Assembly: GCA_026397505.1 (NCBI GenBank)
Contig: JAPLUR010000060.1
Coordinates: 28,081 to 92,080 of the forward strand
Direction: 5' to 3'
Source of the DNA: Candidatus Zixiibacteriota bacterium
Lineage (GTDB): Bacteria; Zixibacteria; MSB-5A5; GN15; PGXB01
DNA length: 64,000 nt
Shown piece after piece: positions 52,096 through 61,454 of the stretch; position 1 is the stretch's first letter; the number at the start of each line of letters is the position of its first letter. The position numbers and the translations under genes were made by a program. Below the pieces are notes generated by a model, which worked only from the letters and a program-made list of their open reading frames with translations, searched no databases and had not been told where the DNA came from.

Positions 52096-53544
52096 ATGAA
52101 CGCAGCCAGCAAACCAGCTATTCTTCTTGCCTATCCTTCTTTCCTGAGCGGCGCCGAATGGTCCGGCCGCGATGAAGTAAAAGCATCGCAATTGATTCTC
52201 GCATCATATCTGGCCGAGCACTTTCCGGTTGAGTATGTTGATTTTGAAATCGAAATCGGCCGGCCGGTAAGTCCGGTGCAGTTTCGTCGTTTTGAACGGA
52301 AGGTACGTGAGTTCCTCGAAAAGCGTGATTACGACATTCTGGGCATCTCCTGCTGGACCAGCCTTTCATATAAAGCAACTATGACTATAGCTCGCATAGC
52401 CCGCGAGGTACACCCGAAGCGACTCATCGTCATAGGAGGATACCATCCCACGGCGCGGCCCGAGGATTTCCAAACTCCCGACAATTTGGTTGATTATGTC
52501 ATCCAGGGGGAAGGGGAGATCGCTTTCAGGGAAATCGCCGCCGCTTTTCCCGTTTCAGGGAGACCGCCGCAAACTAAAGTTATTGCCGGCCCGCCGCTGC
52601 AGCCGGAGCAGTTTGTCGGAGTAAAATGGGACTTGGTCGACGACATGCTCCGCTCTCGTTTCTCGGGAGGAATCGGCACCCTCTGTATTTATCTTTCACG
52701 GGGATGTCCCTTTGAGTGTGCCTTCTGCATGGAGGCGTTGAAAGATCATACCTGGCGCCCTTATTCGGTCGAACAGGCTATCGAGCAGGTACGGATTCCC
52801 ATGGAACGATATAAGGTAATTGCCCTTGCCTTTGGTGATGCCGTTCTCGGTGTGCAGCCGGCCTGGCGAAAGGAATTCTTCCGTCGCCTGGTCGAGCTTA
52901 ACCCGCAGTCATGGATTTTTCTGGAAACCCGACCCGATTTCCTCGATGAAGAGGATATCAAAATGCTTTCGAAACTCAAAGCCGAGATCCAATTTGGGGT
53001 CGAAAGCTGTTCGCCGGAGATGCTTCGTATCATGAACAAAACCAGACAGCCGGAAAAGTTCCTTGCCCGATTCCGCGAGGTCAGTCACATTCTCTCTGAT
53101 TATGGTGTGGTCCACGGTGCCAACCTGATTTTCAACCATCCCGGCGAAACCCGGCGCACTCTGGAAGAGACTTTTGCTTTTGTTGATGCCGAATCGGCAC
53201 GAAAGGATTCATCGCTCATCTGGGCCAGCCACGGTTATTTGCACTTCCCCGGCAATGAAATTGACCGCAACCAGAGCTTCTATGAGCAGAAATATGGAAC
53301 TCGTTTTCTGAGCCCGGACTGGTGGAAAGGTGAGGATGATCCTCTGGTTGCCAGTCGAAATATTATTCCCTCGCGCGATTTGGAGGGGGAGGGGATAACC
53401 TTGTGGAAGAAAATGTTCGGCGAGCGTCAGCAGCAGCTCAAGGATTGTCTGACGCCCAAAGCATTTCGCCTGGCTGCTGAAACCTATTTCCCCGATTGGC
53501 GGCTTGACAGTCGGTACGACGAGCTTGAGAAAGGGAACCGTTAG
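52096..53544 (+). CDS. B12-binding-type radical SAM protein
   Basis: A 482-residue protein. Residues 1-160 are a cobalamin-binding-like Rossmann domain (DYDILGISCWTSLSYKA, IVIGGYHPTARPEDF). The radical SAM core begins with CPFECAFC (C204, C208, C211) and continues with LETRPDFLDEEDIKMLSKLK and QFGVESCSPEMLRIMNKTRQ. The C-terminal part contains HFPGNEID and is typical of the large BchE/P-methylase superfamily. The substrate cannot be told. It heads a three-gene unit with a 2H phosphoesterase and a THEP1 NTPase. Confidence 0.85.
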   Translation: MNAASKPAILLAYPSFLSGAEWSGRDEVKASQLILASYLAEHFPVEYVDFEIEIGRPVSPVQFRRFERKVREFLEKRDYDILGISCWTSLSYKATMTIARIAREVHPKRLIVIGGYHPTARPEDFQTPDNLVDYVIQGEGEIAFREIAAAFPVSGRPPQTKVIAGPPLQPEQFVGVKWDLVDDMLRSRFSGGIGTLCIYLSRGCPFECAFCMEALKDHTWRPYSVEQAIEQVRIPMERYKVIALAFGDAVLGVQPAWRKEFFRRLVELNPQSWIFLETRPDFLDEEDIKMLSKLKAEIQFGVESCSPEMLRIMNKTRQPEKFLARFREVSHILSDYGVVHGANLIFNHPGETRRTLEETFAFVDAESARKDSSLIWASHGYLHFPGNEIDRNQSFYEQKYGTRFLSPDWWKGEDDPLVASRNIIPSRDLEGEGITLWKKMFGERQQQLKDCLTPKAFRLAAETYFPDWRLDSRYDELEKGNR

Positions 53545-53584
53545 TAAATTTCAGTATTCCGGAATGATCGCATTTACCTCTAAT

Positions 53585-54136
53585 ATGCAATATTCAATTG
53601 TCATCTACCCCGATATTGACTGTGAAAAGATAAATGCTCTGAGGCGACAATATGATCCCAATTACAATTTGATTGCTCCCCATATCACTCTGGTATTCCC
53701 CTTCTCCGAGGAAGTTAACGAACAGGGACTGATGGATCATATAAATAATGTTCTGCGAGAAAAACGTCCTTTCAAGATCACTCTTTCCGGTCTGAGGAAA
53801 TCAGACGATCATTGGCTCTTCCTTTTAATAGATGACGGGAAACAGGATTTGTTAGAATTACATAACCGGCTCTACACGGGAATTCTGGCTCCTTATCTTG
53901 TCGCGGGAATCGAATATATTCCGCATCTATCGCTCGGCCGCTTCGCTCAATCCGATGCAACGGCCGCCTGTGAAAGAGGAAAGAAATGTCCTTTTGATTC
54001 GCAGAATTATTGGGAGGCCCTGAAAAAGGCGCGGGAGCAGAATTTATATTATGAATGCATGGTCGATAGAATCCATCTGCTGAAGATTGACGCGGAGAAA
54101 ATTTCATTCTTCAGACAATTCATGTTTGACGTATGA
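53585..54136 (+). CDS. 2H phosphoesterase / 2'-5' RNA ligase-like protein
   Basis: A protein of about 183 residues with the two HxTx-type motifs of the 2H superfamily: APHITLVFPF (near residue 30) and IPHLSLGRF (near 120). These enzymes act on 2',3'-cyclic phosphates or 2'-5' RNA linkages. I place the start at ATG 53585, immediately before the first beta strand (QYSIVIYP); ATG 53564 is possible. It overlaps the THEP1 gene by ATGA. Whether the target here is RNA or a nucleotide is unknown. Confidence 0.78.
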   Translation: MQYSIVIYPDIDCEKINALRRQYDPNYNLIAPHITLVFPFSEEVNEQGLMDHINNVLREKRPFKITLSGLRKSDDHWLFLLIDDGKQDLLELHNRLYTGILAPYLVAGIEYIPHLSLGRFAQSDATAACERGKKCPFDSQNYWEALKKAREQNLYYECMVDRIHLLKIDAEKISFFRQFMFDV

Positions 54137-54654
54137 ATAATTTCCTTATCACCGGTACTCCCGGAGTAGGCAAGACCACTCTCATCAAATCCCTTTTTGA
54201 TGAACTGGTGCAATTCAATCCGGTCGGCTTCTATACCGCCGAAATAAGAGAGAGTGGCATACGCCGCGGCTTCGAGCTGGATGATTTCCACGGGCACAAG
54301 GACTTGCTTTCCCATATTCAGGTAAAGAGCGTCCATCGAGTAGGCAAATATGGTGTCGATATCGAGGGATTCGAACGATATCTCGATACAATCGAATTCA
54401 AAAAGACCGATTGCCGGCTGGTCATTATTGACGAGATCGGCAAAATGGAATGTCTTTCGGGCAAGTTTTTGGCTCTTATTAATGAGCTTCTCGATTCCGA
54501 AAAAACTCTCATCGCCACCGTAGCTGTGGTGGGCGGCGGCATTATTTCTGATGTGAAACGGCGCCAGGATGCCAGGATATTTCAGGTCACCGCCGCCAAC
54601 CGCGATTCGCTTGCTTCCGAAATTGTAAGATATGCCAATGATGCCTTGACCTGA
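54133..54654 (+). CDS. THEP1-type nucleoside-triphosphatase
   Basis: A 173-residue P-loop NTPase of the THEP1/DUF265 family. Walker A is TGTPGVGKTT (about 8-17), followed by NPVGFYTAEIRESGIRRGF, the family signature, and Walker B LVIIDEIGKMEC. Known members hydrolyse several NTPs slowly; the cellular role is unclear. The coupling to a 2H phosphoesterase suggests nucleotide or RNA metabolism, which is inference only. Confidence 0.9.
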   Translation: MNNFLITGTPGVGKTTLIKSLFDELVQFNPVGFYTAEIRESGIRRGFELDDFHGHKDLLSHIQVKSVHRVGKYGVDIEGFERYLDTIEFKKTDCRLVIIDEIGKMECLSGKFLALINELLDSEKTLIATVAVVGGGIISDVKRRQDARIFQVTAANRDSLASEIVRYANDALT

Positions 54655-54672
54655 TTATCATATTGGCGATTG

Positions 54673-55554
54673 TTATGTGATCCGTCGGCCGGGGATGCCG
54701 GAGACGACCAGAGCGGCAAAGATGAATAAGCCGCCGATTGCACTATGCATAACAAATTTCTCTCCGCCGACTGTCCAGGCAAAAATTGCTGCAAAAACCG
54801 GCTCCATGGAAAAGATCAGCGAGACTTTCAGCGGTGAGGTTATTTTCTGTGCAAGCATCTGAATCACAAAAGCCGTCATGGTAGGGAATAAGGCCAGGAA
54901 GATCACCGTCATAGCCACCGAGCTGCCGCGAACTCCCAGCGGCGAGCCGGACAGTAAGCCGGCCCCAAGACTGATAAGCCCTACCAGAATAAATTGCTGG
55001 CAATTTACCACATAGGGATCCAGTCCGGCTTTCATATAACGGTCGGAATAGAGCAGGTGAAGCGCATATGCCATCGCCGCCACCAGTGTCAGTATATCGC
55101 CGGTATTGATTTCTTTCAACCCGCCGGTAAGTATCCAGAGACCGATCAGCGATGTAATCGAGGCGATTATTTCCATTCGAGTGGGTTTTCTTTTGAAAAT
55201 TGTCCTCAAAAATAGCGGTACAAAGGCGACAAACAGGCCGGTTATGAATCCGGAGTTGGAGGCGGTTGTGATCCCCAGACCTATCGTCTGCGGTATATAA
55301 AGGAGTGTCAGAATCACTGCCAGGATAGATGCTTTTCCCAGCTCTCTAAAAACCGGCCGATGACTGAGGAGCAAAAATATCAGAAGAACCAGCCCGGCCA
55401 ATAGAAATCTGTAGGCCACCATTATCACCGGGTCAATTCCGGCCAGAGCCCCTTTCACCATAAAAAAAGTAGCGCCCCAGATGGCGGCAGCGTAGAAAAG
55501 GCCAAAATCGGCCAGAACTCTCTTTGACCTCGGCAAGGTACTCGGGATATTCAT
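54673..55554 (-). CDS. EamA/DMT-family transporter
   Basis: An inner-membrane protein of about 293 residues with ten membrane helices in two EamA repeats. Typical starts are FYAAAIWGATFFMVKGALAG and, in the second half, FPTMTAFVIQMLAQKITSPL followed by SLIFSMEPVFAAIFAW. The substrate is unknown; family members export metabolites or amino acids. I chose the ATG with first base 55554, because a strong promoter ends six bases upstream of it; a longer frame to 55614 would lie across that promoter. Confidence 0.88.
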   Translation of the reverse strand: MNIPSTLPRSKRVLADFGLFYAAAIWGATFFMVKGALAGIDPVIMVAYRFLLAGLVLLIFLLLSHRPVFRELGKASILAVILTLLYIPQTIGLGITTASNSGFITGLFVAFVPLFLRTIFKRKPTRMEIIASITSLIGLWILTGGLKEINTGDILTLVAAMAYALHLLYSDRYMKAGLDPYVVNCQQFILVGLISLGAGLLSGSPLGVRGSSVAMTVIFLALFPTMTAFVIQMLAQKITSPLKVSLIFSMEPVFAAIFAWTVGGEKFVMHSAIGGLFIFAALVVSGIPGRRIT

Positions 55555-55560
55555 ATTGGG

Positions 55561-55589
55561 AGTATCAAGTTTCCGGCCATGTTTGTCAA
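55561..55589 (-). promoter_or_regulatory. Promoter of the EamA gene, placed for a leaderless mRNA
   Basis: On the minus strand: a perfect TTGACA (55589-55584), a 17-base spacer and GATACT (55566-55561). The ATG at 55554 follows after six bases, so the message should begin at the start codon. Confidence 0.65.
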
Positions 55590-55639
55590 AGAATTTCTCA
55601 CCCGATGGTATCAATCAGACCGCCGGCACGAATTGACTG

Positions 55640-56644
55640 TTATCCGCTAATTGTCACTTCTCTAAGGAAGCGGGCCGAGTCCTCCGGAGGTACCGTGTTG
55701 ATATAAATACCAGAGCCGATTTCAAATCCGGCCGGAATGGAAATCTTCGGCACGATCACCATATACCAGTGCTGGTGACGGGTGTCTTCATCGCCGCTGG
55801 GTGCGGAACGAAGAATATAGTTGTAGTCCGGGTTGTTGAGGCCGTGATATATTCTTCCCAGAATGTCCTGCAGGACTCCCGCGAATTCCGACAGTTCCTC
55901 ATCCGAAGCAAGCGTAAATCCGGCCTGATGCCTTTTAGGATAAATCCTTGATTCAAAAGGAGAGCGGGCGGCAAAAGGGCAGAAAGAAACAAAATTCTCG
56001 GATTCGAGAATGATTCGTTCTCCCTGACGAATCTCTTCCTCGATCAAATCGCAAAAGACACAGCGACCATGCTTGTCATAATGAAGAACGGCCTGCTCCA
56101 TCGGGTAGCGCACATGGGGTGGAACGATAGGGGTGGCGATTATCTGCGAGTGGGGGTGCTCCAGTGAGGTTCCTGCCCGCGCACCGTGATTTCGAAATAT
56201 GGTGACTAGGTTGATATTCTCATTTTTGCTCATCTCGCGTTGCCGTTCGCGGTAGGCGCGCAGCACCCCGGCGACCTCTTCGACACTCATGAGGGCAAGT
56301 GTCTGATCATGCCGCGGGTGTTCGATCACCACCTCGGCCAGGCCGAATCCCTTGGCCGAAAGGAATGAACCGACCTGCATCCTGGTGGCTGTCAACCTCG
56401 GCTGCAACGCCGCATATTTGTTTGGTACTACCCGGACCTGCCAGGGCCCGCTTTGCGGGTAGATATAAACCGATTCCTCGGTTTGCCCCTCATTGCCGGG
56501 GCAGAAGGGACATTCGGCTCGGAAAGGAGGCGGGAGTTCGCGCCTTAATTGCTCGCGGGCGATATCATGCGGACGCTTGCCTCGTTCCGGCGCCAGAATG
56601 ACCCATTCTTTGGTAGCCAGATTCTGACGAAATTCCGACATCAT
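55640..56644 (-). CDS. galT: Galactose-1-phosphate uridylyltransferase
   Basis: A 334-residue HIT-superfamily enzyme of the Leloir pathway, exchanging UMP between UDP-glucose and galactose-1-phosphate. Zinc ligands appear in ECPFCPGNEGQ and CVFCDLIEEE. The active-site motif is GTSLEHPHSQIIATP with the nucleophilic His of HPH. NHGARAG precedes it and RHQHWYMVIVPK is the second HIT-like strand. A GGGAGAA site lies before ATGATG; the second Met could be used. No galK or galE is next to it. Confidence 0.92.
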   Translation of the reverse strand: MMSEFRQNLATKEWVILAPERGKRPHDIAREQLRRELPPPFRAECPFCPGNEGQTEESVYIYPQSGPWQVRVVPNKYAALQPRLTATRMQVGSFLSAKGFGLAEVVIEHPRHDQTLALMSVEEVAGVLRAYRERQREMSKNENINLVTIFRNHGARAGTSLEHPHSQIIATPIVPPHVRYPMEQAVLHYDKHGRCVFCDLIEEEIRQGERIILESENFVSFCPFAARSPFESRIYPKRHQAGFTLASDEELSEFAGVLQDILGRIYHGLNNPDYNYILRSAPSGDEDTRHQHWYMVIVPKISIPAGFEIGSGIYINTVPPEDSARFLREVTISG

Positions 56645-59265: not shown

Positions 59266-59889
59266 GTGACTTTTCTAAAAATAGCCCTGTTTATTCCAGT
59301 GATGCTCTGCTTTCTGGAATGTTCGAATTCCGATAAACAAACCGATAGGAATATAGGGAATTTGGGGGATGTCTCGGCGGTGAAGCTCGATGGCCGGCCG
59401 GTGACCGTGGCCGGGGTCACTTTTCGCCCTCCTTCCGCCTGGAAGGATCTGGGGCCTGGGGGCATGAGGCAGGCCAATTATACTCTGGGGCCTCTGGAAG
59501 GGGAGAAAGATTCGGCCACCATGGCGGTTTTCTATTTTGGGGCCACCCAGGGTGGGAGCGTGAACGAAAACATCGAGCGCTGGATCAGCCAAATATCCCT
59601 GCCGGACGGCGGCGACTCGCATAAGGCGGTGGTGCAAAACGATTTCAATGTCGATGGCATGCCGGTGCATTTGGTGGAATTGGCCGGTACTTATCAGGCT
59701 TCGGCCCGGGGGATGATGGGAGGAGCGACAGAATCCAAAGAGAATTATCGTATGGCCGCCGTAGTTCTGGAAACACCCGAGGGGAATCTCTTTTTCAAAC
59801 TGACCGGCCCCGATTATACGGCCCGGACGATGATCGGGCAATTCAGGGCGATGCTTAAAGAAATTAAGCGGGCTCCAAAGCTTGGGTGA
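59266..59889 (+). CDS. Exported protein of unknown function
   Basis: A 207-residue protein from GTG 59266 with AAGGGG upstream. The N-terminus is hydrophobic and ends FLECSNSD; the Cys at 19 could be lipidated, though Glu at -1 is unusual for a lipobox. The mature part is one alpha/beta domain with FRPPSAWKDLGPGGMRQANY, NENIERWISQISLPDG and NLFFKLTGPDYTARTMIGQF, ending in a helix. I recognise no family. A 254-base gap without a gene precedes it. Confidence 0.6.
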   Translation: MTFLKIALFIPVMLCFLECSNSDKQTDRNIGNLGDVSAVKLDGRPVTVAGVTFRPPSAWKDLGPGGMRQANYTLGPLEGEKDSATMAVFYFGATQGGSVNENIERWISQISLPDGGDSHKAVVQNDFNVDGMPVHLVELAGTYQASARGMMGGATESKENYRMAAVVLETPEGNLFFKLTGPDYTARTMIGQFRAMLKEIKRAPKLG

Positions 59890-59910
59890 CATCCGAATTC
59901 GGAATAATGG

Positions 59911-59938
59911 TTGACTAATTTGCCAATAATTTTATATT
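59911..59938 (+). promoter_or_regulatory. Promoter of the HesB-like selenoprotein gene
   Basis: TTGACT (59911-59916), 16-base spacer and TATATT (59933-59938), about 70 bases before the ATG at 60012. GGCCG/CGGCC near 59966-59988 can form a leader hairpin. Confidence 0.55.
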
Positions 59939-60011
59939 GAAAAAAATAGATTATCCTTTTATACGGGCCGAAATATCCCTGTCGGCCGCATAGGAGAAAG
60001 GCAGATATTAA

Positions 60012-60335
60012 ATGCTGGTTATTACCGATAAGGCAGGAATCGAGCTTAAAAAGGTCATTGAATCCCAGGAGGCCGAAAATAAGCAGTTGATCATCTATTA
60101 TCAGGGAGCCGGGTGAAGCGGTCCCTCTGTGGGAATGGCTCTGGATGAGTCAACTGATGATATGGACAAGCTGGAATCAAATGGCATTACGGCCTATATC
60201 GACCGCCGCCTCAATCAATTCCTGGCCGACGTCGGGGATATAAGTATCGATTATATCTCCAGTGATGATGGCCCGAGCGGTTACCGCGTGGTTATTGGTG
60301 AAAAGAAGTGCGGCTCCGGCGGCTGCAGTTGTTGA
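60012..60335 (+). CDS. HesB/IscA-like selenoprotein (in-frame TGA = selenocysteine 35)
   Basis: A 107-residue HesB/IscA-type protein read through an in-frame TGA at 60114-60116. Before it: MLVITDKAGIELKKVIESQE and LIIYYQGAG; after it: SGPSVGMALDE, with homology continuing in the same frame to the end. In IscA the matching position is the first conserved cysteine (SGCSG), so selenocysteine replaces a cluster-ligand Cys. The C-terminus CGSGGCSC corresponds to the CGCG end of IscA and is extra rich in Cys. HesB-like selenoproteins are a known bacterial selenoprotein group. Standard gene finding would either miss it or call only 60129-60335. A candidate SECIS follows the TGA. Confidence 0.85.
60102..60144 (+). 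promoter_or_regulatory. Candidate bacterial SECIS element
   Basis: Bases on both sides of the TGA can fold: CCGG (60109-60112) with CTGG (60141-60144), AGC (60117-60119) with GGCT, and GGTCCC (60120-60125) with GGGAAT (60131-60136) apart from one mismatch. The apical loop is TCTGT (60126-60130). The loop is 10-14 bases after the TGA, somewhat closer than in the E. coli fdhF element. I paired it by eye; no folding energy was computed. Confidence 0.5.
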
Positions 60336-60698
60336 CCGCGCCGGCCGCTAATCCAATAGAGAGTAACGGCGGTTTTGCGCAGATCAATTTATCCTGAAAT
60401 TGACTATTTGCTTGACAGGCGTTGATTCTCAGTCCCTTCCATGTGTAGAAAATGACATTCCGCCCGCCCGAGTCAGAGTAAAATCTCTCGAGAGCCCGGA
60501 TTATGCAAGCGGTAACACGCTCGACAATAAACCGCTTGCCCGGAAGGAACTTTTTATTTATCCTCTGGTATCAGAGATATGAAAAGAAATCGTAAAATAT
60601 TTCAGGTTCTTTGCCTGCCCAATTAAACGCTATCGAATCACCTTTACAAATGATGACCCAATTATTATATATAATCTCAACTAATTTGGAGGTTCTTA
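60336..60698. other. Intergenic region with promoter for the duplicated-domain protein
   Basis: No supported gene in 363 bases. A promoter-like pair is TTTACA (60643-60648) with TATATA at a 17-base spacing (60666-60671), overlapping a TATAAT at 60670-60675. It stands about 25 bases before a GGAGG site and the next ATG. Confidence 0.5.
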
Positions 60699-61454
60699 AT
60701 GAAAAAGTGTGAGGTCATTTTCGCATTGATTCTGTCACTGACCCTGCTGGTCAGCCTGAGCATGGCCGAGACTCAGGAAAAGGCGGCGACCCCTGCCGAC
60801 AGCAGCCACTCAATGGCGATGGAACGGCCGCGGATTGAAGGCTTGAGGGAATTCCATGAGGTCCTGCGCCCGGTCTGGCATACATTCTTGCCTGAAGGCG
60901 ATTACAAATCAGTTCGTGAGGCGGCGCCCCTTTTCAGCAAGAGTGTTGAAAAAATCATGAAAGGCGAACTGCCTTCCTATTTTCAGCATGTGAAAGAGGC
61001 TTTCGAACAGAAACGGCAGGCCCTGGCTCTGGCCACGGCAAAAATGGATACGGTCGCCAAAGGAACCGATGACTCACTGCTGGCCGTCACTGTCGAGGAA
61101 CTGCATACCGCCTATGAGCAGCTGGTGCGCGTAATAGCTCCCAGAATGATGGAAATCGAAAGTTTCCACCTCGTGCTTTATCCACTCTGGCATCAGGCCC
61201 TGCCTGATTCGGACTATGCCGCTATCAAGACGGCCATGCCTGTTTTGAAGGCAAAGATGGATACGCTGATGAGTGCGCCGGTGCCGGAATGGCTAAAAGA
61301 TAAGGAAACCGCCATTTCCGAAAAAAGAGCCGCTCTAAAGAATGCGGTTGACGCGCTCGGGACTGCATGCCAAACCGGCGGTGATGCCGATATAAAGATC
61401 AAAATGACGGCGATGCATGAGAGTTTCCGTGCTTTGGATGGGGTTTTTGAATAG
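60699..61454 (+). CDS. Exported helical protein with an internal duplication
   Basis: A 251-residue protein with a signal peptide (ending LSMAETQ). The mature chain is two homologous helical halves. Half one starts LREFHEVLRPVWHTFLPEGDY (near residue 50) and half two starts IESFHLVLYPLWHQALPDSDY (near 152), each followed by a long helix with EKRxAL. The shared FHxVLxPxWHxxLPxxDY pattern, with two His and one Trp each, suggests metal or haem binding in a four-helix arrangement, but I know no named family. It has a strong ribosome-binding site and its own terminator. Confidence 0.65.
   Translation: MKKCEVIFALILSLTLLVSLSMAETQEKAATPADSSHSMAMERPRIEGLREFHEVLRPVWHTFLPEGDYKSVREAAPLFSKSVEKIMKGELPSYFQHVKEAFEQKRQALALATAKMDTVAKGTDDSLLAVTVEELHTAYEQLVRVIAPRMMEIESFHLVLYPLWHQALPDSDYAAIKTAMPVLKAKMDTLMSAPVPEWLKDKETAISEKRAALKNAVDALGTACQTGGDADIKIKMTAMHESFRALDGVFE

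What the first reader, a model, noticed from the sequence alone, without database searches (positions are those of the whole stretch)
60012..60335. HesB/IscA-like selenoprotein with selenocysteine at a cluster-ligand position
The frame from ATG 60012 crosses a TGA at codon 35 and keeps HesB/IscA homology on both sides without a shift (QGAG-U-SGPSVGMALDE, then a normal C-terminus). The TGA sits exactly where IscA has its first conserved Cys. HesB-like selenoproteins are known as a class, but this gene would be missed or truncated by routine annotation. It implies that this lineage has selenocysteine machinery (selA, selB, selC, selD). The extra Cys-rich tail CGSGGCSC may form a selenium-containing metal or redox site.
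Basis: partly seen in the sequence, partly recalled or inferred. Interest (0 to 1): 0.9.

Follow-up and report, generated by a model that had tools for sequence, protein, structure and literature searches.

The report
Selenium-containing iron-sulfur carrier protein gene
A small gene in an uncultured bacterium, likely one of the Zixibacteria, has an internal stop codon that is predicted to be read as the selenium amino acid selenocysteine, in a protein that would likely handle iron-sulfur clusters; it belongs to a known class of selenoproteins, and existing predictions of its relatives are cut short.

Summary
Frame 60012-60335 crosses one TGA (60114-60116, codon 35), at the position of the first conserved Cys of A-type (IscA/ErpA-like) proteins. 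The genome has tRNA-Sec, SelA, SelD and SelB (split over two overlapping contigs). In 98 related genomes, 70 of 74 strong homologues have TGA at this codon; the 4 with Cys all lie in genomes that also hold a TGA copy. A hairpin 25 nt after the TGA (60137-60151) pairs fully in 67 of 70 TGA genes and in 0 of 4 Cys copies; it shows strong codon constraint and compensatory changes, and pairs in 45 of 45 TGA homologues fetched from other groups. This is very probably a real HesB-like selenoprotein with a bacterial SECIS element.

The class (UxGP motif) is known, so this is a new member of a known kind. It scores below both curated NCBIfam cut-offs for the class, and relatives in protein databases are truncated. 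Function is inferred: likely an A-type iron-sulfur carrier with Sec as a ligand. In this genome no other A-type protein was found beside SUF and IscU/NifU-type genes. The 'extra' Cys tail is a variant of the usual A-type C-terminal Cys region.

The parts
60012..60335 (+). coding frame of the HesB-like selenoprotein, 107 residues with TGA read as Sec
60114..60116 (+). in-frame TGA, predicted Sec codon (residue 35), at the first conserved A-type Cys
   Evidence: TGA in 70 of 74 strong homologues, Cys in 4; aligned to the Cys of 2apn and 1nwb
60137..60151 (+). predicted bacterial SECIS hairpin: stem GGCTC (60137-60141) with GAGTC (60147-60151), loop TGGAT (60142-60146); T60136-A60152 can extend it
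   Evidence: codon constraint, RNAalifold, pair counts, single-sequence fold, presence and absence counts
60309..60311 (+). codon of Cys100 in the C-terminal tail (not among the columns conserved at 90% or more)
60324..60332 (+). codons of Cys105-Ser106-Cys107, the conserved C-terminal Cys pair, proposed cluster ligands
   Evidence: C105 and C107 at least 90% conserved in 72 sequences; Fe-S binding not tested
60333..60335 (+). terminal TGA, taken as the real stop; read through it, the frame ends 7 codons later at TAG
59992..59996 (+). AGGAG, a possible ribosome-binding site, 15 nt before the ATG (rather far)
   Evidence: sequence only

Best explanation
This is a HesB-like selenoprotein gene: its in-frame UGA is predicted to be decoded as selenocysteine by the Sec machinery encoded in the same genome, guided by a conserved hairpin 25 nt downstream that likely acts as its SECIS element, and the product is likely an A-type iron-sulfur cluster carrier that would hold the cluster with Sec35, Cys105 and Cys107. 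Shown: the frame, the TGA conserved in relatives, the machinery genes, the hairpin's codon constraint and compensatory changes. Inferred: that SelB binds this hairpin and Sec is inserted (about 97%); that the protein binds iron or an Fe-S cluster through the selenolate (about 55%); that it passes clusters from the SUF/IscU-type system to client proteins (about 45%). A selenolate ligand might ease cluster release or give the carrier a redox switch; that is speculation. The confidence given is for the selenoprotein part.
For: TGA at the same codon in 70 of 74 strong homologues in 98 related genomes. tRNA-Sec 71.9 bits over cut-off and called by ARAGORN with anticodon tca (the Rfam search also goes over the cut-off in 5 of 14 control genomes), SelA 484.6 bits, SelB in two contig-end pieces with a 141-base identical overlap, SelD 394.4 bits with its own in-frame TGA. 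Hairpin: codon choice at +8, +9, +11, +12 far from background, 99.1% of 350 cells paired, 3 of 5 pairs with changes on both sides, 67 of 70 TGA genes and 0 of 4 Cys copies pair fully, same hairpin in 45 of 45 TGA homologues from other groups. A-type family and fold: PF01521, 2apn and 1nwb by profile, AlphaFold2 pLDDT 87.4, Foldseek SufA, HI1723, IscA. SUF core and IscU/NifU proteins in the genome.
Against: No protein or selenium measurement. The tail 101-107, with the two proposed Cys ligands, is not modelled (pLDDT under 50), so ligand geometry is untested. Single-sequence folding is not exceptional (z -1.10 for 47 nt, -2.42 for 29 nt) and the hairpin alone (-7.3 kcal/mol) just misses the published -7.5; loop ends U and U do not pair, as most published loops do. 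7 of 69 genomes with the Sec gene have no SelA over the cut-off. No Fe-S partner gene was noticed nearby. 6 of 60 good genomes have neither this gene nor an ordinary A-type protein, so the function is not universal in the group. A Methanococcus HesB-like disruption mutant was not impaired in nitrogen fixation (PMC11097638, passage).
Confidence: 0.93

Rival explanations
1. A true selenoprotein on an A-type scaffold, but not an Fe-S carrier: Sec35 and the mobile Cys tail form a selenenylsulfide redox centre or bind a metal or metalloid.
For: Most uncharacterised selenoproteins are thought to be redox proteins (PMC13188914, passages). The motif is UxGP and the tail is a variable Cys/Gly/Ser stretch. 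In 26 of 60 good genomes an ordinary A-type protein coexists, so the Sec form may do something else. No Fe-S neighbour was noticed.
Against: All three ligand positions of A-type proteins are kept, the first as Sec; the fold is A-type; in 18 of 60 good genomes it is the only A-type protein found.
Confidence: 0.4
2. Pseudogene or sequencing error: the TGA is a nonsense mutation in an iscA-like gene.
For: A plain reading of the single sequence: an ordinary reading frame broken by a stop.
Against: 70 of 74 strong homologues, from many genera, have TGA at the same codon with homology kept on both sides; Sec machinery present.
Confidence: 0.01
3. TGA is reassigned to a standard amino acid (Trp or Gly) in this lineage.
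For: A metagenome protein, P0001, has Trp at this position, which is what a caller using TGA=Trp would write.
Against: TGA ends 27 of 73 of these genes; the hairpin and a tRNA-Sec are present; the position is Cys, never Trp, in the 4 non-TGA copies. A suppressor or Trp tRNA reading TGA was not searched for.
Confidence: 0.01
4. The codon constraint downstream of the TGA reflects the conserved peptide or some other nucleic-acid signal, not a SECIS.
For: The encoded peptide (ALDES) is itself conserved; codons at -1, +1, +3, +5 and +6 are biased too, outside the main stem; folding energy of the single sequence is ordinary; related sequences inflate such counts.
Against: The strongest bias is at synonymous positions of the stem and loop; stem changes are compensatory; the stem is missing in 4 of 4 Cys copies of the relatives.
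Confidence: 0.03

Closest known systems
HesB-like selenoprotein as modelled by NF038090 IscA_HesB_Se
   Same: A-type domain, U (or C) in UxGP, C-terminal Cys-rich region; the same downstream hairpin in the fetched loci of this type
   Different: The window protein scores 58.8 bits against a cut-off of 85; seven of ten loci scored from other groups reach 103-131 bits
TIGR01911 HesB_rel_seleno, the family named for HesB-like selenoproteins in PMC13188914 and PMC9312934 (passages)
   Same: Same class and motif UxGP
   Different: 39.3 bits against a cut-off of 66.35
HesB-like selenoprotein of Methanococcus maripaludis
   Same: Same class; identified by mutagenesis and 75Se labelling, function not clear (PMC11097638, passages)
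   Different: Archaeal SECIS elements mostly lie in the 3' UTR (PMC13188914, passages); its sequence was not compared here
IscA / SufA / ErpA A-type Fe-S carriers
   Same: Fold and Cys positions
   Different: Sec in place of the first Cys, GP after it, longer spacing in the tail; far below the IscA, SufA and ErpA cut-offs

Membership tests
HesB-like selenoproteins (class) | A-type (PF01521) domain | tested here: met
   27.1 bits, cut-off 26.3
HesB-like selenoproteins (class) | UxGP motif with in-frame TGA at the first conserved Cys | tested here: met
   U35-S-G-P; TGA in 70 of 74 homologues; motif as listed in PMC13188914
HesB-like selenoproteins (class) | Selenocysteine present in the protein | not testable with these tools
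   needs mass spectrometry or 75Se labelling
NCBIfam NF038090 and TIGR01911 | score over the curated cut-off | tested here: not met
   58.8 against 85 and 39.3 against 66.35; so it is filed with the class, not with these models
Bacterial SECIS (model in PMC13188914) | loop 3-9 nt, stem 4-16 bp, G in the first two loop positions, 16-37 nt from UGA | tested here: met
   loop 5 nt (UGGAU), stem 5 bp, G second, 25 nt
Bacterial SECIS (model in PMC13188914) | minimum free energy at or below -7.5 kcal/mol | tested here: inconclusive
   -7.3 for the 29-nt piece, -13 for 39 and 47 nt, the latter with a second small hairpin
Sec-decoding trait | selA, selB, selC, selD in the genome | tested here: met
   (selB in two overlapping contig ends)
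A-type Fe-S carriers (IscA/SufA/ErpA) | score over the curated cut-off of TIGR00049, IscA, SufA or ErpA | tested here: not met
   39.5/58.8, 13.8/150.6, 17.4/136.2, 41.3/117
A-type Fe-S carriers (IscA/SufA/ErpA) | A-type fold | tested here: met
A-type Fe-S carriers (IscA/SufA/ErpA) | binds and transfers Fe-S clusters | not testable with these tools
   needs biochemistry

The most novel reading that the evidence does not exclude
In this lineage the selenoprotein is the only A-type carrier serving the SUF system, so delivery of iron-sulfur clusters depends on selenocysteine. In 18 of 60 good genomes, this one included, the Sec form is the only A-type protein found. Two separate duplications then made Sec/Cys pairs, a selenium-rich and a selenium-poor version of one carrier.
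Probability: 0.15. Interest if true: 0.65.

Novelty: new member of a known kind. Interest (0 to 1): 0.36.

Why it matters
HesB-like selenoproteins turn out to be frequent in genomes related to this one (69 of 98 searched), where two literature searches found no report of them and where the curated models' cut-offs pass them by, so predictions are truncated or misread. The hairpin, shared with other groups, is a ready signature for finding more. Sec/Cys paralogue pairs and genomes with only the Sec form make an open question testable: what a selenolate does in an iron-sulfur carrier.

Tried and rejected
Pseudogene and reassigned-TGA readings were rejected (see rivals). Gene neighbourhood gave no clue to function: among the 22 shared clusters printed, the recurrent genes looked like a nucleotidyltransferase (22 genomes), galT (20, this genome included), glycogen synthase (18) and, downstream, glutamate dehydrogenase (13) (names are my reading of the sequences, only the window's own galT-like gene was tested). 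Rfam gave no SECIS match for 59900-60500. PF01521 as a genome query found nothing in G000, not even this gene, so that search cannot prove absence of other A-type proteins; TIGR00049 found this gene and nothing else in G000. The hairpin model R1 found no second significant site in the genome (next E 0.36; 150 of 1651 candidates scored). A small second hairpin just after the UGA (columns 12-14 with 22-24) came out of RNAalifold, but one of its three pairs is broken in 19 of 70 sequences and the other two never vary, so I make no claim for it.

Rows dropped: of 74 strong homologues, L117 (cut by a contig end) and L054 (second TGA and long tail) were left out of A1, giving 72, with the window standing for L052; L117 was left out of the tree, and so were L156, L178 and L203 among L155-L204. 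Weak hits (E above 1e-8) were not counted as strong. In the stop-codon count, L054 was read past a second TGA and counted as TAA. Ten of the 48 loci from other groups were scored against NCBIfam.

Full report
WHAT IS THERE. The frame from ATG 60012 to the TGA at 60333-60335 holds 107 codons, with one TGA inside at 60114-60116 (codon 35). Read with TGA as Sec, the protein matches Pfam PF01521 at 27.1 bits (cut-off 26.3), across the TGA. Its best NCBIfam matches are NF038090 IscA_HesB_Se (58.8 bits, cut-off 85), ErpA (41.3/117), TIGR00049 (39.5/58.8) and TIGR01911 HesB_rel_seleno (39.3/66.35), all under their cut-offs. A profile of 72 relatives aligns the U position with the Cys of the CSG motif in HI1723 (2apn) and AQ_1857 (1nwb), the only two PDB sequences matched. 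AlphaFold2 gives mean pLDDT 87.4, with residues 101-107 under 50; 8 Foldseek matches have E at or below 0.001, among them SufA 2d2a, HI1723 2apn, IscA 1r94, 1s98 and 1x0g, and DsrR 2k4z. Because the Cys tail is not modelled, the geometry of the proposed ligands is untested.

THE GENOME CAN MAKE SELENOCYSTEINE. G000 (147 contigs, listed as 100% complete, 3.58% contaminated) has a tRNA-Sec match of 71.9 bits over the cut-off, which ARAGORN also calls, with anticodon tca. The Rfam search alone is not fully specific: it goes over the cut-off in 5 of 14 control genomes. SelA scores 484.6 bits (over the cut-off in 1 of 14 controls), SelD 394.4 (2 of 14). SelB is cut by a contig end: the N-terminal part (293.6 bits, over the cut-off) lies at the end of contig C144, and a C-terminal part (37.6 bits) lies at the end of C141; the two ends share 141 identical bases in the right order, so by inference selB is whole in the organism. 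SelD has its own in-frame TGA in the motif CAGU.

THE TGA IS CONSERVED. 81 of 98 related genomes have a match at E 1e-3 or better. The 74 strong matches (E below 1e-10) have at the aligned codon TGA in 70, TGC in 3, TGT in 1. The 4 Cys genes lie in genomes that also have a TGA copy: G007, G060 and G063 side by side, G030 about 5 kb apart. The tree gives the Cys copies two origins, each next to Sec copies of the same genomes, and sets the relatives' sequences apart from the loci of other groups (99/93); it rests on few columns and the bootstrap had not settled. 27 of 73 genes with a readable stop end in TGA, so TGA is a stop as well. Of 80 named loci fetched by a conserved-peptide scan, 76 have TGA and 4 Cys; titles include Ca. 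Zixiibacteriota, Deltaproteobacteria, Syntrophaceae, Spirochaetes and Myxococcota.

THE HAIRPIN. In the 70 TGA genes, synonymous codon choice is most extreme at the hairpin: +8 Ala GCT 53/54, +9 Leu CTG 70/70, +11 Glu GAG 68/69, +12 Ser TCA 50/59 (background 17, 31, 33 and 12%; minus log10 P 31-39), with +10 Asp GAT 49/52 and +13 Thr ACG 22/27 (9 and 11). Weaker bias (5-19) also lies at -3, -1, +1, +3, +5 and +6; from +14 on no codon goes above 4.7. These P values ignore kinship. RNAalifold finds the stem in columns 27-31/37-41, and a small second one at 12-14/22-24. For the main stem 99.1% of 350 cells pair, 3 of 5 pairs have a change on both sides (mean 0.1 in shuffles; each change is in a single sequence), and sliding the partner by 1-3 columns drops pairing to 19-41%. 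In window coordinates: stem 60137-60141 with 60147-60151, loop UGGAU 60142-60146, 25 nt between UGA and loop. All five pairs form in 67 of 70 TGA genes and 0 of 4 Cys copies; the loop starts UG in 70 of 70 and 0 of 4. In loci from other groups all five form in 45 of 45 TGA genes and 1 of 3 Cys genes; that one, L159, looks like a recent Sec-to-Cys change that still carries the hairpin. The published model asks for a 3-9 nt loop, a 4-16 bp stem, G in the first two loop positions, 16-37 nt spacing and energy at or below -7.5 kcal/mol, mostly with paired loop ends (PMC13188914, passages). The geometry fits; the energy is -7.3 for the 29-nt piece and -13 for 39 or 47 nt, and the loop ends (U and U) do not pair. 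Single-sequence z-scores (-1.10, -1.47, -2.42) would not show a structure by themselves; the comparison does.

WHAT IT MAY DO. The first A-type Cys position is Sec in 70 of 74, and C105 and C107 are kept in 90% or more of 72 sequences. G000 has two SUF core proteins (292.8 and 228.1 bits, contig C88) and two IscU/NifU N-domain proteins (169.0 on C125, 73.5 on C88). In the TIGR00049 search this gene is the only match in G000. Over 60 genomes at least 90% complete and at most 5% contaminated, 26 have the Sec gene and an ordinary A-type protein (TIGR00049 over cut-off), 18 the Sec gene only, 10 the ordinary one only, 6 neither. So the Sec gene stands alone in some genomes, coexists with an ordinary one in others, and is dispensable to the group. 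The likeliest role is an Fe-S carrier with a selenolate ligand; a redox or metal-binding role is the main rival. Neighbours do not point to a partner.

AGAINST. 7 of 69 genomes with the Sec gene have no SelA over the cut-off: G069 and G077 have pieces that start at base 1 of a contig, G003 a 49-bit partial match, G014, G050 and G064 only matches near 20 bits, G021 none; G021 and G064 are 93 and 92% complete. Conversely 27 of 29 genomes without the Sec gene do have SelA over the cut-off, so presence of the machinery does not predict this gene. No measurement of the protein exists here.

WHAT IS KNOWN. HesB-like selenoproteins are a listed family with motif UxGP and model TIGR01911 (PMC13188914, passages), with 11 members and two Sec-to-Cys changes in PMC1794560 (passages and table), and are listed in PMC9312934 (passage). 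The Methanococcus maripaludis protein was found by mutagenesis and 75Se labelling, function not clear; a disruption mutant still fixed nitrogen (PMC11097638, passages). 'Zixibacteria' with 'selenoprotein' gave one paper, whose passages do not treat the point (PMC8318568); 'Zixiibacteriota' with 'selenocysteine' gave none. All 72 aligned members match NF038090 and TIGR01911; from the best E-values (6.9e-20 and 1.7e-12, against 58.8 bits at 5.2e-16 and 39.3 bits at 7.3e-10 for the window protein) I infer that none reaches either cut-off. Of ten loci of other groups scored, seven clear NF038090 (103-131 bits), while one Myxococcota (78.5) and two Spirochaetes (57.7, 66.0) do not. Misprediction is visible among the four database proteins found: P0002, P0003 and P0004 start after the UGA, and P0001 has Trp at the Sec position, probably because TGA was read as Trp.

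VERDICT. What is added: a clade under the curated cut-offs, its conserved hairpin, Sec/Cys pairs, and genomes where the Sec form appears alone.

Noticed in passing
L113 (G000:C122:8398-9324, minus strand): SelD of this genome has an in-frame TGA in the motif CAGU, so it is probably a selenoprotein itself.
   Followed up: partly
L064, L102, L104, L107 (genomes G007, G060, G030, G063): Paired HesB-like paralogues, one with TGA and one with Cys at the same codon; the Cys copies have lost the hairpin. Two separate origins on the tree. They may be a selenium-rich and selenium-poor pair.
   Followed up: partly
L159 (Syntrophaceae contig): A Cys (TGC) homologue that still carries the complete hairpin, a likely remnant of a recent Sec-to-Cys change.
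   Followed up: no
P0001 (ENA metagenome protein, 109 aa): A 68% identical relative has Trp at the Sec position, probably because the gene caller read TGA as Trp.
   Followed up: no
window 53504-56644: 2'-5' RNA ligase-like gene overlapping an NTPase_1 gene by 4 bases, then EamA transporter and galT-like genes on the other strand. A galT-like gene near the selenoprotein gene recurs in 20 genomes, this one included.
   Followed up: partly
window 59266-59889 and 60699-61454: The two genes flanking the selenoprotein gene on the same strand have no Pfam match at E 0.001.
   Followed up: no
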